DNA of 64,000 nt from Rufibacter glacialis. GTDB taxonomy: Bacteria > Bacteroidota > Bacteroidia > Cytophagales > Hymenobacteraceae. The stretch covers positions 248,001-312,000 of the forward strand of contig NZ_VKKZ01000019.1 in assembly GCF_008271745.1 (NCBI RefSeq), written 5' to 3'. Made by a program: the position numbers and the translations under genes. A model generated the notes under the pieces. It saw only the letters and a program-made list of their open reading frames with translations. It made no database searches and was not told where the DNA came from. Of the stretch, positions 49,975 through 63,663 are shown in pieces (position 1 is the first letter of the stretch; each line of letters starts with the position of its first letter).

Positions 49975-51474
49975 ATGCCACATCTTAATTGGGAGTCTTT
50001 GGGTGGTGTCATTACCACAAACATCTCTTCGGTTAGTTGGTCTGCAAACAGAATAGACAATTTTGCCCGGGGAACAGACAATGCCTTGTACCACCGATGG
50101 TGGAACGGCAGTTCTTGGGGCGGTTGGGAAAGTCTGGGAGGCTTTATCACTAGTGAGCCAGTTGCCGTGAGTTGGGGAGCCAATCGCCTGGACGTTTTTG
50201 CGAAAGGCACTGACAATGCCGTACATCACCGCTGGTGGAACGGGAGTTCCTGGGGTGGTTGGGAAAGTCTGGGAGGTATCATCACCAGCAACATAAGTGC
50301 CGTCTGCTGGGGACCTAACAGAATTGACCTGTTTGCAAAAGGCACTGATAATGCCCTGTACCACAAGTGGTGGAACGGCAGCGCCTGGGGCGGCTGGGAA
50401 AGCCTGGGAGGCGCATTTGTAGGCGATCCGGTGGCGGTTAGCTGGGGCGGCAACCGGTTAGATATTTTTGTCAGGGGAACAGACAATGCCATGCACCACC
50501 GGTGGTGGAACGGGAGTTCTTGGGGAGGCTGGGAATCTTTAGGAGGCATTCTCACCAGTAACATAGCCGCTGATTGCTGGGGTGCCAACCGCATTGACTG
50601 CTTTGTGCGGGGAACCGACAACGGACTCTACCACAAATGGTGGAACGGCAGCTCCTGGGGCGGATGGGAAAGCCTGGGAGGTGTCATCACCAGCGACCCG
50701 TCGGTGGTGAGTTGGTCAGGTAACCGGCTAGATGTGTTCGCGAAAGGCACAGACGGCGCCGTCTGGCACCGGTGGTGGAACGGCAGTTCCTGGGGAGGCT
50801 GGGAAACACTGGGCGGGGTGATCACCAGCGAGGTATCGGTTACCTCCTGGGCGCCGAACCGGCTCGACCTCTTTGTGAGGGGTACCAACAACGCGATGTT
50901 CCATAAGTGGTGGAACGGGTCGGCCTGGGGGCCAGGAGTCGCGAACCAAACTCTTACGGTCCATATCAAAATCCTTGCTAACCCCACCAACTTCACGGTA
51001 GACGAGATGTTCACCCAGATGCGGAACATATTCGCAGTTGCTGGAATAGAGGTAGTACGCGGCTCCACGGAGATTCTCAATGTCGCCTTGCCTGCCATTG
51101 CCCCCCTGAACGATATTGATACTGCTAGCTGCACCCGCGGCAACCCATCGGCTGAGCAGATTGCCTTGAGCAACAACCGCAATAATGCCGCGGCCAACCA
51201 TGTGGTGGTTTACATGTGCCGGTCGGTTTCCAGCGACAGCGGCTCCCTGAACGGCTGTGCCTCGTTCCCCACCAACCGGCCCATGGCGGTGGTGGCTTCC
51301 TATGCCTCGCGCTACACCCTGGCCCATGAGGTAGGGCACGTGCTGGGGCTCTCCCACGTGAATGACAACAACCGCCTCATGACGAGCAACGGAACGTATA
51401 ATATCACCAATCCTCCGCCTGATCTGGTTGCATCTGAGGTAACCACCATGCTTGCAAGTAATCTTTCTGTATAG
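49975..51474 (+). CDS. Seven-bladed PLL-type lectin propeller fused to a metzincin-like metalloprotease
   Basis: 499 residues from ATG 49975 ([11 protein letters not shown]). Residues 6-320 are exactly seven 45-residue repeats of the form WESLGG..T...[22 protein letters not shown], as in the Photorhabdus PLL/PHL fucose-binding lectins. After a short linker, residues about 325-499 form a zinc protease domain with [11 protein letters not shown] at 451-461 (HExxHxxGxxH) and a downstream Met in NRLMTSNG as the Met-turn. Three Cys in this domain suggest an extracellular environment, yet neither start gives a Sec signal, and no T9SS C-terminal domain is present. The lectin would target glycans and the protease would act locally; this is inferred. 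A HEAT-repeat gene follows after 17 bp. Confidence 0.88.
49990..50934 (+). repeat. Seven 135-bp coding repeats (lectin propeller blades)
   Basis: Seven in-frame units of 45 codons with no gaps. Odd units (1, 3, 5) share NIS/NIA, NRID and ALYHKWW-type residues; even units (2, 4, 6) share DPVAVSW, NRLD and HHRWW-type residues, and unit 7 is mixed. This suggests amplification by two-blade steps. Units differ mostly at third codon positions. Confidence 0.92.
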
Positions 51475-51491
51475 AACCTAAACGTACGGTT

Positions 51492-51950
51492 ATGCCCATC
51501 AATAAAGAGGAGCTCAAAAGGATGATCAACCTGGATGAGCCAGAGTATGAAGCCCTTGTTAGTAGGTTGTCGGCAGAGGATATCCCCACGCTGGTGGAGC
51601 TGTCAAAGGAGCCGGACCTTGCCATTGCCACCAAGGCGATCAGTTGCCTGGGCCATATGGGAAATGAGCGTGCCCTGGCAGGGCTACGGGAAGCCGTGGA
51701 CCATCAAGACCCGGTACGGCGCGTGGCAGCGGCTAATTCCCTGCAGAACATGGCAAACGTGCAAGGGAGCGTGCAACTGTTAGAAAGGCTTTTAGATGAT
51801 AATGACATTGGAGTTAGGAAGTTCGCGCTGAAAACCGTGGAGGCCGGCAATATCTCGCAGTTGAAGGAAAAAGTGCGGGTGATGAACGAGCGGGAGGTCA
51901 ACCCTTCTCTGAAAACCCTTTCCCAGCAGGTGTTGCAAAGATTACGGTAA
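51492..51950 (+). CDS. HEAT-repeat protein linked to the lectin-protease
   Basis: 152 residues, all helical, with three to four HEAT/PBS-lyase-type repeats: LVELSKEPDLAIATKAISCL, ALAGLREAVDHQDPVRRVAA, and LLERLLDDNDIGVRKFALKT. No signal peptide or membrane helix. It starts 17 bp after the lectin-protease stop and is very likely co-transcribed. A chaperone, inhibitor or immunity-like partner for the protease is conceivable but only inferred from position. Confidence 0.75.
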   Translation: MPINKEELKRMINLDEPEYEALVSRLSAEDIPTLVELSKEPDLAIATKAISCLGHMGNERALAGLREAVDHQDPVRRVAAANSLQNMANVQGSVQLLERLLDDNDIGVRKFALKTVEAGNISQLKEKVRVMNEREVNPSLKTLSQQVLQRLR

Positions 51951-52549
51951 TTAATAAGGGACCGGCCTTACTTGATTAACGCCCCCTGCTCTGAAGGGGT
52001 TGCTCCAGGGTTCCCCTGGCCGCCTCACCAGGGCACCAGGAGGGGTGTTGTCAGATAGTAAACGGAGTCGGGATCTGTTTTAATTACCCTTTGTGCCTTA
52101 TATCAAGCTTATTGTCTGTCAAAGCAAAGCTATGAAAAGCCCGAAGGCTTCTGTCTTCGGGCTTTTCATAGCTTTGCTTTTGTTTCTTTTAAATAGCTTT
52201 ATACAGTTACTGTGACCATTTTACCGCGCGTTTAAGTATGCCTGCTAATGTTGAGAACTTGCCCCTTCTGAGAATATATCAGTTAATGGTATTCTACCAG
52301 GTAAAGGCTGGTAAGAATTCTTCTATTTGGTAAATCCCTTAAAGTCCCCATTATTGCTACCATTAACCCTTTCCGTTAGAAGGATCATAGTAGGTAAAAA
52401 CAGGTTTAATATTTATAATGGGCAGACTGGGGTATGTGCTAGCTATAGTGGGTGAACTTGCCAACGGTGAATTAAGTACGTTGAGCCCATCCGGAGTTAA
52501 TTTTTACCAAACCTATTGAACAAAGACCAGAAGCGTGTCATTAAATTAA
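51951..52549. other. Gap of about 600 bp with a long perfect hairpin
   Basis: No gene. The only structure is the 26-bp stem at 52121-52180. The AT-rich remainder (52190-52540) has no family-like open frame. Confidence 0.6.
52121..52180 (+). terminator. Terminator-like hairpin with 26-bp perfect stem
   Basis: AAAGCAAAGCTATGAAAAGC followed by CCGAAG pairs exactly with the 26 bases at 52155-52180 around the loop GCTTCTGT; TTGTTTCTTTT follows. It lies 170 bp after the HEAT gene stop and is presumably its terminator, though unusually long. Confidence 0.8.
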
Positions 52550-55098: not shown

Positions 55099-56391
55099 AT
55101 GGCAGGAGTATTAACTACTATATTTTTGGATACTAGAAGGCCAAGAAAAGATGGCACCTATCCAGTTAAGTTAAGGCTTACCCATCTTAGAGAAAGAAAA
55201 TACTTTCCCACAGCTTACTTCTTAACAGCTGAAGATTTTGCAAAGACACAGGCTGAGCGGGCGAGGGGAGAGTTTAAAGAAATTCAAATTGCGTTGCGGG
55301 CAATGGAAGCCCATGCCACCGAGGTGATAAAAAAATTGCCTGTATTCTCATTTGATGCCTTTGAAAGAGCATATTCCAAGGTGGATACTTATAACGATGT
55401 GTTTGATTCTTTTTCTCAAGCGGTAAATCGGTTAGTTGAAAATGGACAGGTTGGCACAGCGAAAACCTATGAGAATGCTCAAGTTTCCTTGCTTTCATTT
55501 ATCCTTAAGGAGCCTACCACTCAGAACAAAGGGTTAACACTGAAAGAGGCAACAGCTAAAAAAGAGAACTTGCTGAAAAAGAAGAAACCTCTTCCATTTG
55601 CTGCAATCACTCCTGCATTTCTCAAAGATTATGAACGATGGATGATTCAATCCGGCAAATCAAGTACTACTATTGGAATATATTTAAGAAATCTAAGGGC
55701 CTTATTTAACGAAGCAATGGCATCAGGAGATATTCCAGCAGAAATCTATCCGTTTGGGAAAAGAAAATACCAGATACCTGCGGGGCGTAACACCAAAAAA
55801 GCCCTCACCAAGCAGGAGATTGCCAAAATTTTCGCCTATGAACCGAGGCACGACAGCGAGGCTAAAGCCCGTGACTACTGGTGCTTTTCTTATCTCTGTA
55901 ACGGTATCAACTTAAAGGACGTCGCTCGCCTAAGATATCGACAAGTTACCGAGGAAACGATTTCCTTTATAAGGGCTAAAACCGAACGTACTACCCGGCA
56001 TGACCAGAAGGTAATAAAGGTGCCACTGTTGGCAGAGTCTGCCAAAATAATTGAAAGGTGGGGCAACAAGCCGGCCTTAGCAAATTCCTATGTTTTCCCT
56101 ATACTGCAGGAGGGGCATACTCCCGATAGGGAGATGGCTGCAGTGACACAGGCAATTAAAAGCATCAATAGGTACATGAAGAGGATAGCAGCGGAGGTGG
56201 GGATTGAGATGAATGTCACCACCTACTCAGCAAGGCATTCATTCTCTACAGTGCTGAAAAGGGCAGGGGTGTCTACGGCCATGATTTCTGAGTCTCTAGG
56301 CCACTCCTCAGAGAAGACTACGCAGAGTTACCTCGACAGCTTTGAGGACGATGCTAAGCGCCAAATTGCCTCACATTTAACTGATTTCTGA
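55099..56391 (+). CDS. Tyrosine recombinase/site-specific integrase
   Basis: 430 residues. An N-terminal arm-binding region (GVLTTIFLDTRRPRKDGTYP, then VKLRLTHLRERKYF) is followed by a SAM-like core-binding domain (about 105-215) and the catalytic domain (225-425). The catalytic set is visible: Arg in LKDVARLRYRQ, Lys in FIRAKTERT, the box-II TTYSARHSFSTVLKRAG with His-x-x-Arg-like ARH, His/Gly in SLGHSSEKTTQ and the nucleophile Tyr in SYLDSF. It resembles integrases of Bacteroidota conjugative and mobilisable elements. Adjacent to the tRNA-Arg half-site that is its likely target. Confidence 0.95.
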   Translation: MAGVLTTIFLDTRRPRKDGTYPVKLRLTHLRERKYFPTAYFLTAEDFAKTQAERARGEFKEIQIALRAMEAHATEVIKKLPVFSFDAFERAYSKVDTYNDVFDSFSQAVNRLVENGQVGTAKTYENAQVSLLSFILKEPTTQNKGLTLKEATAKKENLLKKKKPLPFAAITPAFLKDYERWMIQSGKSSTTIGIYLRNLRALFNEAMASGDIPAEIYPFGKRKYQIPAGRNTKKALTKQEIAKIFAYEPRHDSEAKARDYWCFSYLCNGINLKDVARLRYRQVTEETISFIRAKTERTTRHDQKVIKVPLLAESAKIIERWGNKPALANSYVFPILQEGHTPDREMAAVTQAIKSINRYMKRIAAEVGIEMNVTTYSARHSFSTVLKRAGVSTAMISESLGHSSEKTTQSYLDSFEDDAKRQIASHLTDF

Positions 56392-56445
56392 AAAAACCGT
56401 ATTACGTTCTTTCTTAGTGAAGCCTGAATAAACTCATAATGATAT

Positions 56446-57534
56446 ATGGCAGATATAATGGAAGACGGACTTGAGCATTCAGAGGAATGGCTCCCCTTTG
56501 ACGACGGTATCACCCGGGACAAAGAGTATTACTATAATTTCTACTCCACTATTGTCTATAGACACCCCTACTTTTCCTATGTCCCTGAGCCACCTGAGCA
56601 GTTCACCATTAAACCTGCTTTTTCCGAGATTTACCCTTACTTGATTCCTAAGTACACCCACCATGACAAGTACTCTTTCAATTGTATCACCCCTGAGGAT
56701 TTTAATGAGAAGTCCATCCAGGTAGGGTTGTGCCATTGGATTCAGCGGCACCCCCCGGGTGAGGTGGAGGCCTTCCTTGATTTCCAGTATGGAGGTTACA
56801 TAGCCCGGGCAACCCCAAAGGGAGACCCAACCGCTTTCTTGGATTACCTCATCTCCACTGTCCAGACCTATAATGACCCAACCAGCACCCATAACAGATG
56901 GGATGAGGGGGATTACGAAAGGTTAAAGGCTATGGGAAAATGGATTAGGTCCCATCCCGGGTACATTGATTCATTCAACCAAAGGCTAAGGGCTTGGGTA
57001 AGCCTCAGCTATGGCTTCAAAGAAAGGTCAGGCAGAGAATTAGAGATTCTGATTCAAGAGAAGATGAAGTCCCAAATTGAGTTCGTTCCAGATGAAAAGG
57101 AACTAGTCCCGCATAATCTAAATGAAAACCCTGACTATAAATTTGATGCTGAAAAAGCCATTGTTCTAAAGAGGCTGGGATTCCTTTCGGGGTACATAGC
57201 GGTTGGCAGGAAAATCATGGACCAGGAGGACTACCATAGATTGGTGGAATATACCTTGCGGATGGTAAAGGAGGGAGGCTTGCCTGATGGCCTTAACCCA
57301 ATAACCAATGTCGATGTCTCCCAACGCCATATCCTGCGCACATATTACCTGATTCACAAAGAACTTTATGGGATAAGGCCAAAAAGGCCATATTTCATTG
57401 ATTTCTTATTTGAGGTGTTCCCGAACCATTTCAATGATGAAAAAGCGGAAAGGTCAATCATACTTGAGGGATTTTCAAAGAGCCCGCCATTTTACGGAGT
57501 TGACGTGGACAAATGGGGTAAGATAGGTAAGTAA
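56446..57534 (+). CDS. Hypothetical protein of an integrated element
   Basis: 362 residues (ATG 56446, or ATG 56458 as MEDGLEHSEEW), rich in Tyr, Pro and charged residues, with no signal or membrane segment. I recognise no domain. The C-terminal third (SQRHILRTYYLIHKELYGIR, then PKRPYFIDFLFEVFPNHF) looks like a compact helical domain of the kind that often precedes an HTH gene in Bacteroidota islands, so a regulatory or excision role is possible but unproven. It lies 54 bp after the integrase and 78 bp before the HTH gene on the same strand. Confidence 0.75.
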   Translation: MADIMEDGLEHSEEWLPFDDGITRDKEYYYNFYSTIVYRHPYFSYVPEPPEQFTIKPAFSEIYPYLIPKYTHHDKYSFNCITPEDFNEKSIQVGLCHWIQRHPPGEVEAFLDFQYGGYIARATPKGDPTAFLDYLISTVQTYNDPTSTHNRWDEGDYERLKAMGKWIRSHPGYIDSFNQRLRAWVSLSYGFKERSGRELEILIQEKMKSQIEFVPDEKELVPHNLNENPDYKFDAEKAIVLKRLGFLSGYIAVGRKIMDQEDYHRLVEYTLRMVKEGGLPDGLNPITNVDVSQRHILRTYYLIHKELYGIRPKRPYFIDFLFEVFPNHFNDEKAERSIILEGFSKSPPFYGVDVDKWGKIGK

Positions 57535-57612
57535 GGTAAGAACTTCTTACCTATTTCTTGCCGCCTGATTAAAGCCTAATCTTGTGTCGTTAATATAATT
57601 AAACGATACGTG

Positions 57613-57939
57613 ATGACAGGATTAACATTTGACCAGCTACCCAACGCGGTAGCAACCATGCTCCACAAGATGGAGTCGCTTGAGCAAAGGCTCATGCAAT
57701 TACTTACCTCTTCCCCCGCGGATGACAGACCTATGGGCGTAACCGAGGCGGCGGAGTTTCTCGGCATTCCCAAGAACACCCTCTACGGGATGACCAGCCG
57801 CAGGGAGATACTTTGTTTCAAAGCAGGGAAGCACCTGAAGTTCCGCAGGAAGGACCTGTGGGACTGGGTCATGGAAGGTCGGCAGGAGACCGCCGCCCAA
57901 ATCCAGTCAGCCGCAAGGAAGGGGGTGCGCCGTGCATAG
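57613..57939 (+). CDS. Helix-turn-helix (excisionase-type, MerR-like) DNA-binding protein
   Basis: 108 residues from ATG 57613 (GTG 57610 is also possible). A leading coiled coil (AVATMLHKMESLEQRLMQLL) is followed by a winged HTH of the excisionase family at about 42-90: PMGVTEAAEFLGIPKNTLYG and CFKAGKHLKFRRKDLWDWVM. Proteins like this direct excision or activate the replication module of islands. Its 3' end overlaps the next gene by 8 bp. Confidence 0.88.
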   Translation: MTGLTFDQLPNAVATMLHKMESLEQRLMQLLTSSPADDRPMGVTEAAEFLGIPKNTLYGMTSRREILCFKAGKHLKFRRKDLWDWVMEGRQETAAQIQSAARKGVRRA

Positions 57940-59284
57940 CTCCTTCAACCTGCAACAGTTTCTGTCCGCCACGGCAGTAAAAGCCCACGTGGAGTTTCCG
58001 GTGGAGGCCTTCCCAGCGCCCCTCCAAAAGATTATTAAAGACCTTTGGGATTATCTCCTTTATCCGGTGGACTTCACGGGCAGCTCCCTGCTCATGGCCA
58101 TGGGTGTTGCCGTAGGTAATGCCCTTAAAGTACAGGTGAAGAAGGGTTGGCTGGAAAGCACCTTGCTTTATATGGCCTTAGTGGGTAGGCCCGGCACAGC
58201 CAAAAGCCATCCGCTTTCGTTCGCCCTCAGTCCCCTGCATAAGCGCGACAGGGGGTTGTACCTTACGCACAGGGAGGAGATGAAAGAATACAAACGGGAA
58301 CTGGCCCAGCATAAAAAGGATAAAGGTGGGATGCCGCCGCCTGACAAGCCGATTGTCAGCAAGAGCGTCATCCAGGACAGCACACCCGAGGCGCTGCTGG
58401 AGGTGCTACAGAACAACCCCAGGGGCCTGGTCCTTTACATGGACGAATTGATGGGGTACCTCAACAACTTCAACCGCTACAGCCAAGGGAGCGAGCAGGA
58501 GATGTGGCTAACCATCTGGAGCCAGAAGCACCTTATCCAGGACCGCAAGTCCGGAGAGCCCATCAATATCCCCAGTCCCTTTGTGGCCGTCGTAGGCACC
58601 ATCCAGGATGGCATGCTGGAAAGCATGGCCAAAGGAGGGCGCAGCGTCAACGGCTTCCTAGACCGTTTCCTTTTCGCAAAGCCTAAGAATCTGGAGAAGG
58701 CATACTGGTCCCAGGTTGAGATAGATTCCTCCGTGGAGGAGGAGTGGGAGAAGTATATGGATAACCTTTTCGAAATACCCATGGAACTGAACGAGGAAGG
58801 GAGCCCGAGCCCGAAAGTCCTCCTTTACTCACCTGCGGGCCATGCCCTTCTCTCGGAATGGCAGAGATACAATACCGACCTGGTGAACTCCGCCCCCACG
58901 GATTCACTGGCGGGAATGTACGTAAAGATGGAGACCCAATGCATCAGACTGTCGCTTGTCCTTCAAGCTGCCATCTGGGCCACCTGCGAGGGGGATTTAG
59001 ACCGGGTAGGTACTCAGGCCGTGCAGGGGGCTATTATGCTCACGGAGTATTTTCGCCGCACGGGCACCGAGGTCAACGACATCATCACCAACTATAGCCC
59101 TCTTGACAGCCTGCCTGAGGACAGGAGGAGGTACTATGAATCTCTGCCCAACGAGTTCTCCAAAGCAGAGGCCCTGAACTTGGCGTTGGACCATGGGATT
59201 AAGCCTCGCACACTGGCAGACTTCCTCAATAAGGCAACCCTCTTCCGGAACACAGGGCATGGCAAATACATAAAACTTATCTAA
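57932..59284 (+). CDS. DUF3987 helicase/primase-associated ATPase
   Basis: 450 residues from GTG 57932, preceded by GGAAGGGGG. DUF3987 region at about 20-400, with a P-loop GRPGTAKSH near residue 88, Walker B LVLYMDELMG near 168 and VVGTIQDGMLES as the sensor-like segment. In Bacteroidota islands this protein works with a Toprim primase, presumably in replication of the excised circle. It overlaps the HTH gene by 8 bp, so translation is probably coupled. Confidence 0.9.
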   Translation: MHSSFNLQQFLSATAVKAHVEFPVEAFPAPLQKIIKDLWDYLLYPVDFTGSSLLMAMGVAVGNALKVQVKKGWLESTLLYMALVGRPGTAKSHPLSFALSPLHKRDRGLYLTHREEMKEYKRELAQHKKDKGGMPPPDKPIVSKSVIQDSTPEALLEVLQNNPRGLVLYMDELMGYLNNFNRYSQGSEQEMWLTIWSQKHLIQDRKSGEPINIPSPFVAVVGTIQDGMLESMAKGGRSVNGFLDRFLFAKPKNLEKAYWSQVEIDSSVEEEWEKYMDNLFEIPMELNEEGSPSPKVLLYSPAGHALLSEWQRYNTDLVNSAPTDSLAGMYVKMETQCIRLSLVLQAAIWATCEGDLDRVGTQAVQGAIMLTEYFRRTGTEVNDIITNYSPLDSLPEDRRRYYESLPNEFSKAEALNLALDHGIKPRTLADFLNKATLFRNTGHGKYIKLI

Positions 59285-59384
59285 GGCACCTCTGCATTTC
59301 CCGCACTATCTGCACTTTGGGTTTCTTCACACCTGGGCAAAATGCGGATAGTGCGGATAATGCGGGCCATCACAAGAAAAAGGG
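59285..59384. promoter_or_regulatory. Iteron-like repeats between the ATPase and primase genes
   Basis: The right part reads GCGGATAGT-GCGGATAAT-GCGGG, three units with a 9-bp period. The left part CCCGCACTATCTGCACTTTG is an imperfect inverse of it. About 25 bp separate the two arms. It could be a replication origin or an operator of the module. Confidence 0.55.
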
Positions 59385-60421
59385 ATGAATACATACCAAT
59401 ATAACCTCCAGCGCTACAGCGGGCCGGGTAGCCGTTATGACTGCCCGGAGTGCAGAAAGAGGAAGCGCTTCACCCGGTACGTAGATAGAGAAACAGGGGA
59501 GACCCTACATCCGTCGGTCGGGCTGTGTGATAGAAAGGGGAGCTGCGGGTACCACCTAAGCCCCAGTGAGTATCTGCGGAGAAACGGGATTTCCTTCAGT
59601 TCGGCCCCAGCCCCGAGGGCAATGCAGCACAAACCAAAGTCACCTTCTTACATAAAGCATTCTTTGGTGAAGGCGAGTAGGAAGGCTTTCCAAAGGAACC
59701 ACTTCTTTATTTTCCTGACTAACATTTTTGGGGCGGATGTCGCTAAGGAGTTAGCTGACCTTTACCTTATAGGAACCTCCAAATACTGGCCCGGAGCCAC
59801 GGTCTTTTGGCAGGTGGACTGCGAAAATAGGGTACGCACTGGCAAGGTCATGCTTTATGACCTCCAGACGGGAAAACGTGTAAAGGAACCCTGCAGCAGG
59901 ATACACTGGGCACATTGCCTTGTAAATGACCCCCACTTCCGGCTAAGTCAATGCTTATTCGGGGAGCACCTCCTGAGAGAATATCCCGGCAAACCGGTGG
60001 TTATCGTGGAGAGCGAGAAGTCCGCCCTTATCGCCAGCGCCTACTACCACGAGTATGTTTGGCTCGCCAGCGGAGGTATATCCCAACTGAACATGGAGAA
60101 GTGCCTGTCCCTAAAAGGGCGGAACATAACGCTCATTCCTGACGCCGATGCATTCCTGGCATGGCAAGAGAAGGCACGGATTTTGGAAAAAGACCTCGAG
60201 CAAAGGGTAAAAGTTTCCAGGGCCTTGGAGGACATAGCCACTGAAACCGAGCGAGGGGAAGGTTGGGACATTGCCGACTTCCTGCTGAAGAAAAAATTAA
60301 AGGGTTTATTGAATATTTAAAACAAAGTAATAAAAATTTTAATAAACCCTTTAATAAGAACATAGATGAATTGAATGAGGCGCTGTCCGATGAACAGGAA
60401 GCAGATAGCTATGTCCTGTAG
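59385..60421 (+). CDS. DUF6371 Toprim-like primase protein, with -1 frame continuation
   Basis: The zero frame encodes 311 residues (stop at 60320). An N-terminal zinc ribbon (YDCPECRKRKRFTRYVD, then LCDRKGSCGYHLSP) is followed by a Toprim-like domain near 200-270 (VVIVESEKSALIASAYY, then TLIPDADAFLAW with acidic residues). After the A6 run at 60291-60296 the -1 frame is open for another 40 codons (KIKGFIEYLKQSNKN, then IDELNEALSDEQEADSYVL) and ends at TAG 60421. The zero frame ends in an unlikely KKKLKGLLNI. Either a programmed -1 slip or a one-base indel makes the longer protein. It partners with the DUF3987 ATPase. Confidence 0.8.
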
Positions 60422-60637: not shown

Positions 60638-62740
60638 TTAAGAGTTCGTTATTTTAATTCCGTCAAAGAAATAGTCCAAAATGTATTTATCAAATTCGTC
60701 TAAATTATTTGTCCTTTCTATGGTCATTTCTTTTCCAATTTCTTTAAGTTGTTCAACTACACTATGAATTGTCAATTCGCTATCATAGAAATCAATAACT
60801 TTGGATTCGTGAATTTTTTTTGAAATCATTCTAGGTAAACCATATTCTTCTAGTTGAAATACAACTCTGGGTAGAAATGCGTGGGAGCACCACCTTATGA
60901 ATTTAGAAATGTCATACTGCTTATTCTTTAATATTCTTTTTTGTAAGGTGTTTAAGTCATTTAAAAGAGTTGAAAACTTATAGGTTACATTTCTTTCTAA
61001 AAGAAAGAACTTATCGATACCTACGTCGCAATCTTCAAGTTCTTTCAATAATTCGGGTATAGATTTAGTCCAGTTATATGCTATAATCTTAATGAACTCA
61101 ACAAAGGTTTTATAACCTGTATCCCAGTTTCCAGGTTGTAATTTTATAATCTTATATAAAAGTCTATCCCAGTTTTTTGGATTAAACTCATTCAAATAAT
61201 ACAATCCATTCCATTCGTTCGGATTCTTTGTTAAGTCAATAGCAATCGCTTTAATTAATTCAGAATTGCTTGATTGGAAAGCAGATTCAGATTTTAATTC
61301 TTCATATACCTGAACTCCTATGAGTTCAGCCATTTCGTTATTATAAATTTTTAATTTTGCAACTTGTTCTTTTGATAACAAGCCTTCATATTTATTTTCG
61401 TCTAAATCTCCCAGTAGCTCTTCTGGAAAAAGGATTTCTAATTGAGTGTGACCTTCTTCTGGTGGCTTTTCTAGAATATATATTTTACCAATAAAATGCT
61501 TAAACATTCTACCGCCTCTACCAATAATATTTTTATAGGTAAAATCATCTAATTTTACACTTCCTTTTCTATTTCTCCAGATTATTACATTTTCAGCCGA
61601 AGTATTGACTCCTTCTATAATTGAGGAGGTTGAAATCAAGTTTCTAATACCAGTTGCTTCTTCAAATAGTTTTACCTGGATTTGACTTAGTGAACGGTGT
61701 AATCTCCCATTATGAACGCCAATTTCACGTCTGACTAATTTTGTTAAACTCCAATTGACATCATAATTTTTAGAAAGCCAATCTGCGAACATTTCAAGAA
61801 GTTTATTTTTTGCAGGCTCGTAATTGTCAAGAAATAAATTTGTTAAACTATCTATATTAGAATATGTTCCAGCATATATTAAAGACTTTCCTTTATTTTG
61901 AGATAATATTTCTAAAAGTTTTTTGCTTTTTTCTTCATTGCCACTTATTTGATTGTATAATTCGTGCTTCTCTAAAAAAACAGTATTAAAATCCAATCTT
62001 ATAAACTCCATGTCATCAGTAAAAGGATTGCTATCCAAAGACGTGATATTTGGTGCTAAATAATATTTCTGATTAGATTTTGCGCCAAATTTAATCATAG
62101 CCCGAATCAAACTAGGAGAACGTTCTTTATCATACTTGCTACTAGCTTTATAAAATTCATCAATTATCATAATGTCAAACGATTCAACATTATTGATGTA
62201 ACTTATAGCTCTTTCTTGAGGAAAAATAAATATGTTCTTATCTTCCAATTTTTCATCTGATGTTGTGATTATTTTATAATCATTTGCGAACTTTTTATAT
62301 ATTCTCCTTCTGGTTTCATCAGTTAATGCTAATGTTGGAACTATTATTAAAACATTTTTTGGTTTTTTGATTTTGATATAAGCATCAATCACAAAGCTTT
62401 TTCCAAAACTTGTTGGTGCGCTTACAGCAATACTTTTACCTTCTAAAAGGTTTTTAAGTAAAAAGGATTGTTCTCTGTGGAGAGTTAACGGTTTGTCTTC
62501 ACCTACGTCAACCTTAAAGGCATTATAAACGAATCTCTCTTCCCAATTTGAAGTTTCTGGTTCTAAATAGGGGAAAAGTCCTGTTTCTCTAATTAAATGA
62601 TTTATTAAAGGATTGTAGGATAAATTATTAATGCTATGATAATCCAATAGCTTAATTAGTTCTTGTCTGGCTCGATTTTCTTGGTTGTTAATTAGAAGCC
62701 CGTTAATTACATGGCACTGGTTAAAAATTTGTTCTTGCAT
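60638..62740 (-). CDS. hamB: Hachiman anti-phage helicase HamB
   Basis: 700 residues of a superfamily 2 helicase. Motif I APTSFGKSF near residues 108-116, motif II MIIDEFYKAS near 195 (DEFY for DExH), motif III YYLAPNITSL, motif V STSSIIEGVNTSAENVII, and motif VI NIIGRGGRMFKHF. The C-terminal half is helical and lacks known domains. It lies 2 bp downstream of HamA, the standard Hachiman order. In studied systems HamB monitors DNA and releases the HamA nuclease when the genome or phage DNA is damaged or altered. Strongly AT-rich, unlike the chromosome, so acquired. Confidence 0.9.
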   Translation of the reverse strand: MQEQIFNQCHVINGLLINNQENRARQELIKLLDYHSINNLSYNPLINHLIRETGLFPYLEPETSNWEERFVYNAFKVDVGEDKPLTLHREQSFLLKNLLEGKSIAVSAPTSFGKSFVIDAYIKIKKPKNVLIIVPTLALTDETRRRIYKKFANDYKIITTSDEKLEDKNIFIFPQERAISYINNVESFDIMIIDEFYKASSKYDKERSPSLIRAMIKFGAKSNQKYYLAPNITSLDSNPFTDDMEFIRLDFNTVFLEKHELYNQISGNEEKSKKLLEILSQNKGKSLIYAGTYSNIDSLTNLFLDNYEPAKNKLLEMFADWLSKNYDVNWSLTKLVRREIGVHNGRLHRSLSQIQVKLFEEATGIRNLISTSSIIEGVNTSAENVIIWRNRKGSVKLDDFTYKNIIGRGGRMFKHFIGKIYILEKPPEEGHTQLEILFPEELLGDLDENKYEGLLSKEQVAKLKIYNNEMAELIGVQVYEELKSESAFQSSNSELIKAIAIDLTKNPNEWNGLYYLNEFNPKNWDRLLYKIIKLQPGNWDTGYKTFVEFIKIIAYNWTKSIPELLKELEDCDVGIDKFFLLERNVTYKFSTLLNDLNTLQKRILKNKQYDISKFIRWCSHAFLPRVVFQLEEYGLPRMISKKIHESKVIDFYDSELTIHSVVEQLKEIGKEMTIERTNNLDEFDKYILDYFFDGIKITNS

Positions 62741-62742
62741 GT

Positions 62743-63663
62743 TTAATCTCTATAGGCTTTTGCTATTTGAATGAATTTATCAACAATTTTATTTTTATCT
62801 GCAATTGGAAACAGAATAATATGGAAATTTATTTTATCATATAAATGAACATCTGTGCATTTTTGAATTTGTTTTTTAAAGTATTGTGTTGCTCTGTCTT
62901 GATGATAATCAATAATACTTTGCTTGTATTCTGATGTTAAATCAGTTCCTGATTTTGTTTGTTCGCATTCGTATAAAAGCAAAATTGGAATATTTAAAAT
63001 TGGTTTTACTTTATCGATTGATATTCCTTGTGAAAGACTTGCTTTAATTTTTATTCTTAAATCATCAGAAATCTGGTCATAATCGTTTATGTCACTTAAA
63101 TTGGTGATTATACTATTTTCTTTTTTAATCTTTTCTAAGCTAATAGAGTCTTTGACCGAGGCAACAATGGTGTCTAATCGAGTATTTTCAATATTGTTGT
63201 AAAATTTAGATTCTCCAAACCAAAGCGAAAATGAATCTTCAGATTCTATGACAATGTGAACGCTGTCAGAACCTTTAGCTTCATCTCCTGTATTTTGCTT
63301 GTAAAAAATCTTTGGCACAATTGGAAGTGCAGAGTAATGGTTTTTCATAATTCCATAAAGTACAATTTCAGCTATTTCACTACCTCTTCCTATTGCATCA
63401 ACAGATTCTACTAACCTTAATTTTTTTGCAGACTCTGCTAGAATTGAACCTGCACCATCACTCAGCAACGCTTTTCTCTCACCATGGCTTAAAGCTGTTT
63501 CTGTAATATTATCCCAAACAAAATTTTGAAACTTTTCATATCTCCATTTTCCGTTTTCAAAGTCGTTGATTATGCCAAGAACAGATTTGTTGGAAGTCGG
63601 ACTTAAAGAGTCATCTAACTTAATGTTATCAAATATATCATTGACTATGATTTCAAATTTCAT
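62743..63663 (-). CDS. hamA: Hachiman anti-phage effector HamA (DUF1837)
   Basis: 306 residues of the DUF1837 family. The hallmark block is GRGSEIAEIVLYGIMKNHYS (from residue 93), ALPIVPKIFYKQNTGDEAKG, SDSVHIVIE and SLWFGESKFYNNIEN. Glu96, Asp133 and Glu151-x-Lys153 match a PD-(D/E)xK-like nuclease arrangement. HamA is the DNase effector held inactive by HamB. Translation of HamB starts 2 bp after this stop, so the two are co-translated. The upstream partial gene on the same strand, 55 bp away, may share its promoter. Confidence 0.92.
   Translation of the reverse strand: MKFEIIVNDIFDNIKLDDSLSPTSNKSVLGIINDFENGKWRYEKFQNFVWDNITETALSHGERKALLSDGAGSILAESAKKLRLVESVDAIGRGSEIAEIVLYGIMKNHYSALPIVPKIFYKQNTGDEAKGSDSVHIVIESEDSFSLWFGESKFYNNIENTRLDTIVASVKDSISLEKIKKENSIITNLSDINDYDQISDDLRIKIKASLSQGISIDKVKPILNIPILLLYECEQTKSGTDLTSEYKQSIIDYHQDRATQYFKKQIQKCTDVHLYDKINFHIILFPIADKNKIVDKFIQIAKAYRD

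What the first reader, a model, noticed from the sequence alone, without database searches (positions are those of the whole stretch)
49975..51950. Seven-bladed PLL-type lectin fused to a metzincin protease, with a HEAT-repeat partner gene
One 499-residue protein carries exactly seven 45-residue [14 protein letters not shown]-type blades, the architecture of PLL/PHL fucose-binding lectins from Photorhabdus, followed by a zinc protease with [11 protein letters not shown] and a downstream Met-turn. I know of PLL lectins and of metzincins separately, but not of this fusion as a described system. It has no visible Sec signal and no T9SS domain although a lectin-protease should act outside, and a small HEAT-repeat gene begins 17 bp later. 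A glycan-targeted protease with a dedicated chaperone or inhibitor is a testable idea.
Basis: partly seen in the sequence, partly recalled or inferred. Interest (0 to 1): 0.8.

Follow-up and report, generated by a model that had tools for sequence, protein, structure and literature searches.

The report
Lectin-guided protease with HEAT-repeat partner
A bacterium carries a protein-cutting enzyme joined to a ring-shaped, probably sugar-binding part, next to a small partner gene; relatives in other bacteria keep the enzyme and the partner but swap the front part, which suggests a conserved, re-aimable two-gene device whose job is not yet known.

Summary
In detail: ORF 49975-51474 (499 aa) has seven 45-residue PLL/DUF346 units and a metzincin domain ([11 protein letters not shown], Met-turn); a 152-aa HEAT gene starts 17 bp later. 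AlphaFold2 gives 28 propeller strands and a metzincin order; Foldseek's best hits are PHL/PLL2. The emphasis needs correcting: the conserved thing is not the PLL-protease fusion but the protease-HEAT pair. I found 14 further loci of this protease, from three named phyla plus that of a 'Deltaproteobacteria' record, two on plasmids; 15 of 15 have the partner directly downstream (14 score as HEAT_2 in Pfam, one only by alignment). Searched on its own, the partner's close relatives lie in exactly the records or genomes that hold the protease. The N-terminus is swapped: PLL, bulb-type lectin, LGFP, DUF6623, DUF5648, a CxxC repeat, an unassigned repeat, or almost nothing. No Sec-like start was seen in 13 proteins scanned. 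The window's genome lacks both contractile sheath families tested. Best reading: a bacterial chimerolectin-type protease, held or released without Sec, aimed by an exchangeable module, with HEAT as cytosolic inhibitor or immunity partner. The HEAT role and target are inferred; a joined-chain model showed no confident interface. New variant of a known kind.

The parts
49975..51474 (+). Lectin-metzincin chimera, 499 aa (start codon not certain; in-frame ATG 49918 and TTG 49903 upstream)
49987..50931 (+). Seven 45-residue PLL/DUF346 units (residues 5-319), seven-bladed beta-propeller
   Evidence: 28 strands in residues 6-313; PHL/PLL2, TM 0.83 by target length
50935..51474 (+). Metzincin catalytic domain (residues 321-499), the conserved core of the family
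51130..51132 (+). Invariant Cys (residue 386; 15 of 15 loci), possible disulfide partner of Cys428
   Evidence: pairing is inference
51256..51258 (+). Invariant Cys (residue 428; 15 of 15 loci)
   Evidence: pairing is inference
51325..51357 (+). Zinc-binding motif [11 protein letters not shown] (residues 451-461)
   Evidence: all three His and the Glu invariant in 15 of 15
51379..51381 (+). Met-turn Met469 (invariant in 15 of 15)
51492..51950 (+). HEAT-repeat partner, 152 aa, no signal peptide by eye
52121..52180 (+). Perfect 26-nt inverted repeat with T-rich tail, terminator-like, after the two genes

Best explanation
The two genes form a small, horizontally spread module: a minimal metzincin protease whose N-terminal module decides what it sticks to, plus a HEAT-repeat protein that works only with it. 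In this genome the module is a seven-bladed PLL-type lectin, so the enzyme should dock on fucosylated or O-methylated glycans through several weak sites and then cut proteins there. Neither protein shows a Sec signal, and this genome lacks both contractile sheath families tested, so I think the protease accumulates in the cytosol and acts when the cell lyses, is eaten, or exports it by a non-classical route, much as fungal cytoplasmic lectin-protease chimeras do. The HEAT protein would cap or hold the protease while it is inside (inhibitor or immunity protein). Shown: architecture, conserved zinc site, exclusive HEAT pair with correlated divergence, swapped N-termini, patchy spread. Inferred: sugar specificity, activity, route out, HEAT as inhibitor, target cell.
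For: Pair: 15 of 15 loci have the partner gene next. HEAT searched on its own finds the same 2 of 72,556 plasmid records as the protease. In 200 family genomes (the listed handles agree between the two calls), strong hits for either gene are the same 3 genomes. In 222 genomes of the family of L016 (Fibrisoma), the protease is in 3 and the stand-alone HEAT hits are in the same 3. Correlated divergence: r 0.74 over 15 loci, 0 of 10,000 permutations as high; 0.66 without two near-duplicates (0 of 10,000), and 0.50 and 0.56 in thinned sets of 10 and 9 (54 and 15 of 10,000); HEAT diverges 1.5-1.6 times as far. Swapped N-termini on proteases that are 66-74% identical: PLL in the window, B_lectin in L003/L004, CxxC repeats in L011. 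The cassette DUF6623-protease, HEAT, solo DUF6623 recurs in Fibrisoma, in a genome of Sphaerotilus's phylum (L034) and in one of L019's phylum (L035). No Sec-like N-terminus in 13 of 15 proteins scanned (highest 12-mer mean hydropathy 1.31, against 2.14 and 2.21 in two controls). No PF04984 or PF05943 match in the window's 99.95%-complete genome. Precedents: PLLs lack a recognised signal; cytoplasmic fungal lectins and MOA.
Against: No activity, binding or localisation data. The joined-chain model of L013 protease + HEAT gave good separate domains (pLDDT 77.5) but pTM 0.48, i.e. no confident interface; a capping mode is not shown. Two invariant cysteines suggest a disulfide, which the cytosol would not favour; this fits activation outside but equally fits direct export. 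Of the N-terminal modules only PLL and B_lectin are sugar binders that I know of (recalled); LGFP, DUF6623, DUF5648 and the other repeats are not established lectins here. PF04984 matches occur in 9 of 13 carrier genomes (8 over the cut-off), which does not exclude contractile delivery elsewhere. L012 has almost no N-terminal module, so targeting is not obligatory. Correlated divergence is expected of any two genes transferred together.
Confidence: 0.42

Rival explanations
1. HEAT is a dedicated chaperone or export adaptor: it keeps the chimera soluble or hands it to a non-Sec exporter, and the protease is an ordinary secreted exo-enzyme that attacks glycoproteins for food or competition.
For: Strict adjacency and exclusivity fit a chaperone as well as an inhibitor; HEAT folds are general binding platforms, and the model's HEAT part matches alphaRep binders and CpcE/CpcF. 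PLL2/PLL3 are found outside without a recognised signal.
Against: The HEAT family stays with the C-terminal protease domain whatever the N-terminal module is, so it is unlikely to serve folding of the lectin part. No secretion gene was recognised among the window neighbours scanned or annotated near the two plasmid loci; neighbours of the other loci were not annotated.
Confidence: 0.22
2. A cytosolic conflict or stress-response protease: the N-terminal module senses an invader or damage product, the protease cleaves the HEAT protein or a cell target, and nothing is exported.
For: No Sec-like starts. HEAT proteins occur in defence-like systems; the window HEAT matches PADLOC HEAT-ARM_XIII over about 100 of 1972 positions, E 4.3e-10. 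A zincin paired with a small, fast-diverging protein that it cleaves is described in other bacterial conflict systems (PMC7159879, passage). Patchy, partly plasmid-borne spread.
Against: The protease has no PADLOC match. Known sugar binders among the N-terminal modules (PLL, B_lectin; recalled) act on extracellular sugars, and an invariant Cys pair suggests an oxidising site of action.
Confidence: 0.18
3. An effector delivered by a contractile injection system, with HEAT as immunity protein.
For: PF04984 matches (any contractile sheath, prophages included) in 9 of 13 carrier genomes, 8 over the cut-off; exchanged N-termini and a fast-diverging partner resemble effector-immunity pairs. Zincin-type toxin domains of such systems are described (PMC3482391, passages).
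Against: The window's own genome and three others (G185, G594, G595) have no PF04984 match, and 11 of 13 have no T6SS sheath (PF05943) match; no such gene is annotated near the two plasmid loci. PF04984 and PF05943 cover sheaths only.
Confidence: 0.07

Closest known systems
PLL/PHL seven-bladed lectins of Photorhabdus (PF03984 DUF346)
   Same: Seven blades, 41-42% identity to PHL and PLL2 in the fold search, E 1.3e-91 to PLL2, no recognised signal peptide.
   Different: The Photorhabdus PLLs with solved structures are propellers alone; here the propeller carries a C-terminal metzincin and a HEAT partner. Sugar binding is untested.
Fungal chimerolectin proteases, MOA of Marasmius oreades
   Same: N-terminal lectin plus C-terminal protease; fungal predator-directed lectins are described as kept in the cytoplasm, and fruiting-body lectins as lacking a classical signal (PMC6272156 passages).
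   Different: MOA has a beta-trefoil lectin and a papain-like Ca/Mn-dependent protease (abstract start of PMC8244254; passages); here a propeller and a zinc metzincin. I recall no HEAT partner for MOA and did not test it.
PGBD-matrixin-PLL protein of a Paenibacillus amylolyticus plasmid (WP_338709029.1)
   Same: Also joins a PLL-type propeller (PLL3, E 3.4e-125; Pfam listed no DUF346 hit at E 0.01) to a metzincin; no signal peptide by eye.
   Different: Reverse order, clear Matrixin domain (E 6.2e-31), extra peptidoglycan-binding domain, similarity to this protease mainly around the zinc motif; no HEAT gene among the five other genes listed within about 4 kb, in a gene table that is incomplete.
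Serralysin (AprA-type) with its neighbouring inhibitor (AprI/Inh)
   Same: A bacterial metzincin with a dedicated inhibitor gene next door (recalled, no call).
   Different: That inhibitor is a periplasmic beta-barrel and the enzyme leaves by type I secretion (recalled); here a HEAT protein, and no RTX repeats were reported by Pfam.
Polymorphic toxin-immunity systems
   Same: Modular exchange of one end, one conserved neighbouring partner gene, patchy spread.
   Different: There the C-terminal toxin domain varies (abstract of PMC3482391); here the catalytic end is constant and the N-terminal end varies.

Membership tests
PLL-type lectin (DUF346) | Seven W-motif repeats above the Pfam cut-off | tested here: met
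   7 stretches, 151.9 bits against 22; 7 units of 45 aa
PLL-type lectin (DUF346) | Seven-bladed propeller of four-stranded blades | tested here: met
   AlphaFold2 model, 28 strands in residues 6-313, ten-residue blocks of residues 11-310 at pLDDT 78-92; best Foldseek hits PHL/PLL2
PLL-type lectin (DUF346) | Binding of L-fucose or O-methylated sugars | not testable with these tools
   Needs protein and glycan binding; binding-site residues were not mapped one by one
Metzincin metalloprotease | HExxHxxGxxH plus Met-turn, conserved in homologues | tested here: met
   Invariant in 15 of 15 loci
Metzincin metalloprotease | Metzincin fold | tested here: met
   Strand/helix order in the window model, though residues 461-473 are below pLDDT 50; Foldseek of the L013 chain: archaemetzincin, fragilysin, ADAM, MMP at E about 1e-4 to 1e-3
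Matrixin (Pfam PF00413 / M10) | Clear match to the family profile | tested here: inconclusive
   24.2 bits against cut-off 24 for the window; 13 of 14 relatives fall below it, L034 is above at 24.5, and L004, L019 and L034 pass a Reprolysin model instead or as well
Chimerolectin protease (MOA-like) | Lectin domain fused to protease, no Sec signal | tested here: met
   the signal test is a hydropathy scan, not SignalP, and sugar binding is not shown
Chimerolectin protease (MOA-like) | Homology of the protease to MOA (papain-like) | tested here: not met
   The protease is a metzincin; it may work like, but is not a member of, the MOA family
HEAT-repeat protein (partner) | Match to Pfam HEAT models | tested here: met
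   Window above cut-off; HEAT_2 at E 0.01 or better in 12 of 12 rows of A2 and in L033; L034 matches below the cut-off (23.1 of 27.7) and L035 has no Pfam match, placed only by alignment, 45% identical to L016's partner
Toxin-immunity pair | Partner binds and neutralises the toxin | tested here: inconclusive
   Joined-chain model pTM 0.48, no confident interface
Toxin-immunity pair | Partner always adjacent and exclusive | tested here: met
   15 of 15 adjacent; reciprocal searches agree once weak generic HEAT hits are set aside
Known anti-phage system | Match to described defence proteins | tested here: not met
   No PADLOC match for the protease; three matches of the partner, to HEAT stretches of larger models or weak

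The most novel reading that the evidence does not exclude
A so far undescribed bacterial family of chimerolectin-type metzincins: one protease head re-aimed by at least seven exchangeable front modules and kept silent in the cytosol by its own HEAT-repeat inhibitor, passed between phyla on plasmids and islands as a lysis-released defence against grazers or rival cells.
Probability: 0.27. Interest if true: 0.8.

Novelty: new variant of a known kind. Interest (0 to 1): 0.6.

Why it matters
If right, bacteria have their own version of the fungal lectin-protease weapon, with natural domain swaps showing which front modules a single catalytic head can accept, and a HEAT protein as a new kind of metzincin inhibitor. 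Even if the mechanism is different, an exclusive protease-HEAT pair found across several phyla, annotated piecewise as 'matrixin' or 'hypothetical' and 'HEAT repeat' proteins where annotation was seen, deserves a name and a test. It also suggests a role, targeting, for LGFP, DUF6623 and DUF5648 repeats.

Tried and rejected
Unique PLL-protease fusion: rejected as the defining point, because relatives swap the N-terminus and Paenibacillus has another PLL-matrixin.

HEAT as chance neighbour: rejected (15 of 15; reciprocal searches). Weak HEAT hits in G125 (E 8.9e-4, 689-aa frame), G669 and G765 (E about 1e-9, frames over 1000 aa) were set aside as generic HEAT proteins. Weak protease hits G105 and G121 (E 9.1e-4 and 1.8e-4, 29% and 38% identity over 91 and 57 residues that include the zinc motif) were set aside as other metzincins; their proteins start with a hydrophobic stretch (G121 by scan; G105 by eye). 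Three viral-contig hits matched only 16-24 residues at the motif and were dropped.

Correlated divergence: weaker, though still above most permutations, when near-duplicates and close relatives are removed.

Phage origin: no match in 50,697 phage records. Contractile delivery in the window's genome: no sheath match.

Literature: no paper describing the pair was seen in the listings. Searches found no paper; some searches listed 15 of 55, 12 of 27 and 15 of 17. The chimerolectin review PMC12355970 holds no 'metallo', 'zinc' or 'peptidase' at a word start. I saw passages of PMC12355970, PMC12203525, PMC6943638, PMC6272156, PMC7159879 (all 7 places) and PMC3482391 (12 of 53 places; its two 'HEAT repeat' places were not shown and its text is cut), and the abstract and outline of PMC13324453; no whole paper.

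Limits: no SignalP, no model coordinates, so the Cys386-Cys428 distance and sugar sites were not measured. In the hydropathy scan L003 (starts at a contig end) and L033 (start unknown) were left out, and the starts of L004, L019, L034 and L035 are approximate. The neighbours of most loci were not annotated.

Full report
What is there. The 499-residue ORF at 49975-51474 holds seven 45-residue units (residues 5-319) that score as DUF346/PLL repeats (7 stretches, E 3.5e-45) and match the solved lectin PLL2 at E 1.3e-91. The units are 58-82% identical to each other. The rest is a domain with [11 protein letters not shown] and a Met-turn; Pfam Matrixin just reaches its cut-off (24.2 against 24). 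The HEAT gene starts 17 bp after the stop, and a perfect 26-nt inverted repeat with a T-rich tail follows at 52121-52180, so the two genes look like one transcription unit (inference).

Fold. AlphaFold2 on the window protein (8-row alignment) gave pLDDT 76.8, pTM 0.63, 28 strands in the propeller and a metzincin-like order of strands and helices in the rest; the stretch after the zinc motif (461-473) is below pLDDT 50. Foldseek puts PHL and PLL2 first (TM 0.83 by target length). A second model, of the L013 protease and HEAT genes read as one chain, gave pLDDT 77.5 and pTM 0.48; its matches (E about 1e-4 to 1e-3) include archaemetzincin, fragilysin, ADAM and MMP for one part and alphaRep and CpcE-CpcF for the other.

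Relatives. With the catalytic domain as query I found 14 further loci: two in the window's own family (L003, L004), two plasmids (Spirosoma L011, Streptomyces L012), seven in genome contigs (L013-L019), and three more in whole-genome searches (L033-L035). By record titles they span Bacteroidota, Actinomycetota, Pseudomonadota and the phylum of a record titled Deltaproteobacteria. The family is rare. Matches, starting genomes included: 3 strong of 200 in the family sample (5 with two weak ones), 1 of 395 in the phylum sample, 3 of 222, 2 of 299, 2 of 235. No phage record matched.

The pair. All 15 loci have the partner gene immediately downstream on the same strand. HEAT_2 matches 12 of 12 rows of A2 and L033; L034 matches below the cut-off; L035 has no Pfam match and is placed by alignment, 45% identical to L016's partner. 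Asked the other way round, the window's HEAT protein finds only the same two plasmids and the same three genomes among 200 (plus one weak generic hit); the HEAT alignment finds a stand-alone gene in the same three among 222 (plus two weak hits inside frames over 1000 aa). Distances of the two genes across the loci correlate (r 0.74, 0 of 10,000 permutations); without near-duplicates r is 0.66 (0 of 10,000) and in thinned sets of 10 and 9 loci 0.50 and 0.56 (54 and 15 of 10,000). HEAT diverges 1.5-1.6 times as far. Correlation is expected of genes that travel together; exclusivity is the stronger point.

Swapped N-termini. PLL propeller: window. Bulb-type lectin: L003, L004. Three WRFCTKC-type repeats: L011. 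LGFP repeats: L013, L014, L015, L018. DUF6623: L016, L017, L034, L035. DUF5648: L019. An unassigned repeat, seven units by eye: L033. Almost nothing: L012. Close proteases carry different modules (window, L003/L004 and L011 are 66-74% identical across modules), while the DUF6623 cassette, with a second solo DUF6623 gene after the partner in 4 of 4 loci, recurs in three groups. Both patterns point to module exchange and horizontal spread.

Location. A hydropathy scan of 13 of the 15 N-termini found no Sec-like stretch (highest 1.31; two controls 2.14 and 2.21). That is a rough test with some approximate starts. Photorhabdus PLLs also have no recognised signal peptide although PLL2 and PLL3 were found outside (PMC12203525 passage). 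Fungal fruiting-body lectins have no classical signal and are kept in the cytoplasm for an eater; MOA is a lectin-protease among the predator-directed ones (PMC6272156 passages). The window's genome has no match to either contractile sheath family, though 9 of 13 carriers match PF04984 and 2 of 13 PF05943.

Mechanism. I commit to a lectin-guided protease kept in check in the cytosol by HEAT and acting after release (0.42). The main rival is HEAT as chaperone or export adaptor (0.22), then an intracellular conflict protease (0.18) and injected effector (0.07). Against my choice: the joined-chain model gave no confident interface; two invariant cysteines would suit an oxidising place; several modules are not known to bind sugar; nothing has been measured.

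Known or new. PLL lectins, metzincins and lectin-protease chimeras are known kinds. The Paenibacillus protein shows that a PLL-matrixin fusion arose elsewhere too, and a Nocardia plasmid protein joins a BP39L-like lectin stretch (E 2.5e-26) to a papain-type domain. The protease-HEAT pair with exchangeable front was not seen in the papers listed or the passages read (some lists were capped); subscription literature is mostly not in that library.

Noticed in passing
window 60638-63663 (-): A Hachiman defence pair: HamB helicase (E 8.6e-243) and HamA DUF1837 (E 3.8e-133) by PADLOC, in a 4-kb stretch of 32% GC.
   Followed up: partly
window 55099-60320 (+): A tyrosine integrase with Arm-DNA-binding domain, followed by ORFs that look replication-related by eye (not matched to families; no PADLOC match), looks like an integrated element next to the Hachiman pair; it begins about 3.1 kb after the HEAT gene.
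   Followed up: partly
L019:4918-6465: The first strand of the protease domain (RVRLHLKV) is separated from the rest by DUF5648-type repeats, as if repeats were inserted in the domain or the metagenome assembly is rearranged.
   Followed up: no
L016:6982-7428, L017:6981-7427, L034:565-1005, L035:2495-2935: A solo DUF6623 gene follows the partner gene wherever the protease carries DUF6623 (4 of 4 loci, Pfam); a possible free copy of the binding module.
   Followed up: partly
L044:3869-5410 (Nocardia plasmid): A protein whose N-terminal part matches the BP39L propeller lectin (E 2.5e-26) and whose C-terminus matches Peptidase_C70, a papain-like protease: another lectin-protease arrangement.
   Followed up: partly
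L043:2909-4705 (Paenibacillus plasmid): Peptidoglycan-binding domain, matrixin and PLL-type repeats in one protein, laid out somewhat like an animal MMP with a propeller at the end (the MMP comparison is recalled).
   Followed up: partly
L012:7872-8003: The short N-terminus of the Streptomyces protein (MFFPVS...DGVCPHNG) resembles a worn single copy of the Spirosoma CxxC repeat (by eye).
   Followed up: no
L042 (own genome, contig C20, 257162-257239): One marginal further DUF346 hit in the window's genome (22 bits, at the cut-off, one stop inside the frame); it may be a remnant or chance.
   Followed up: no
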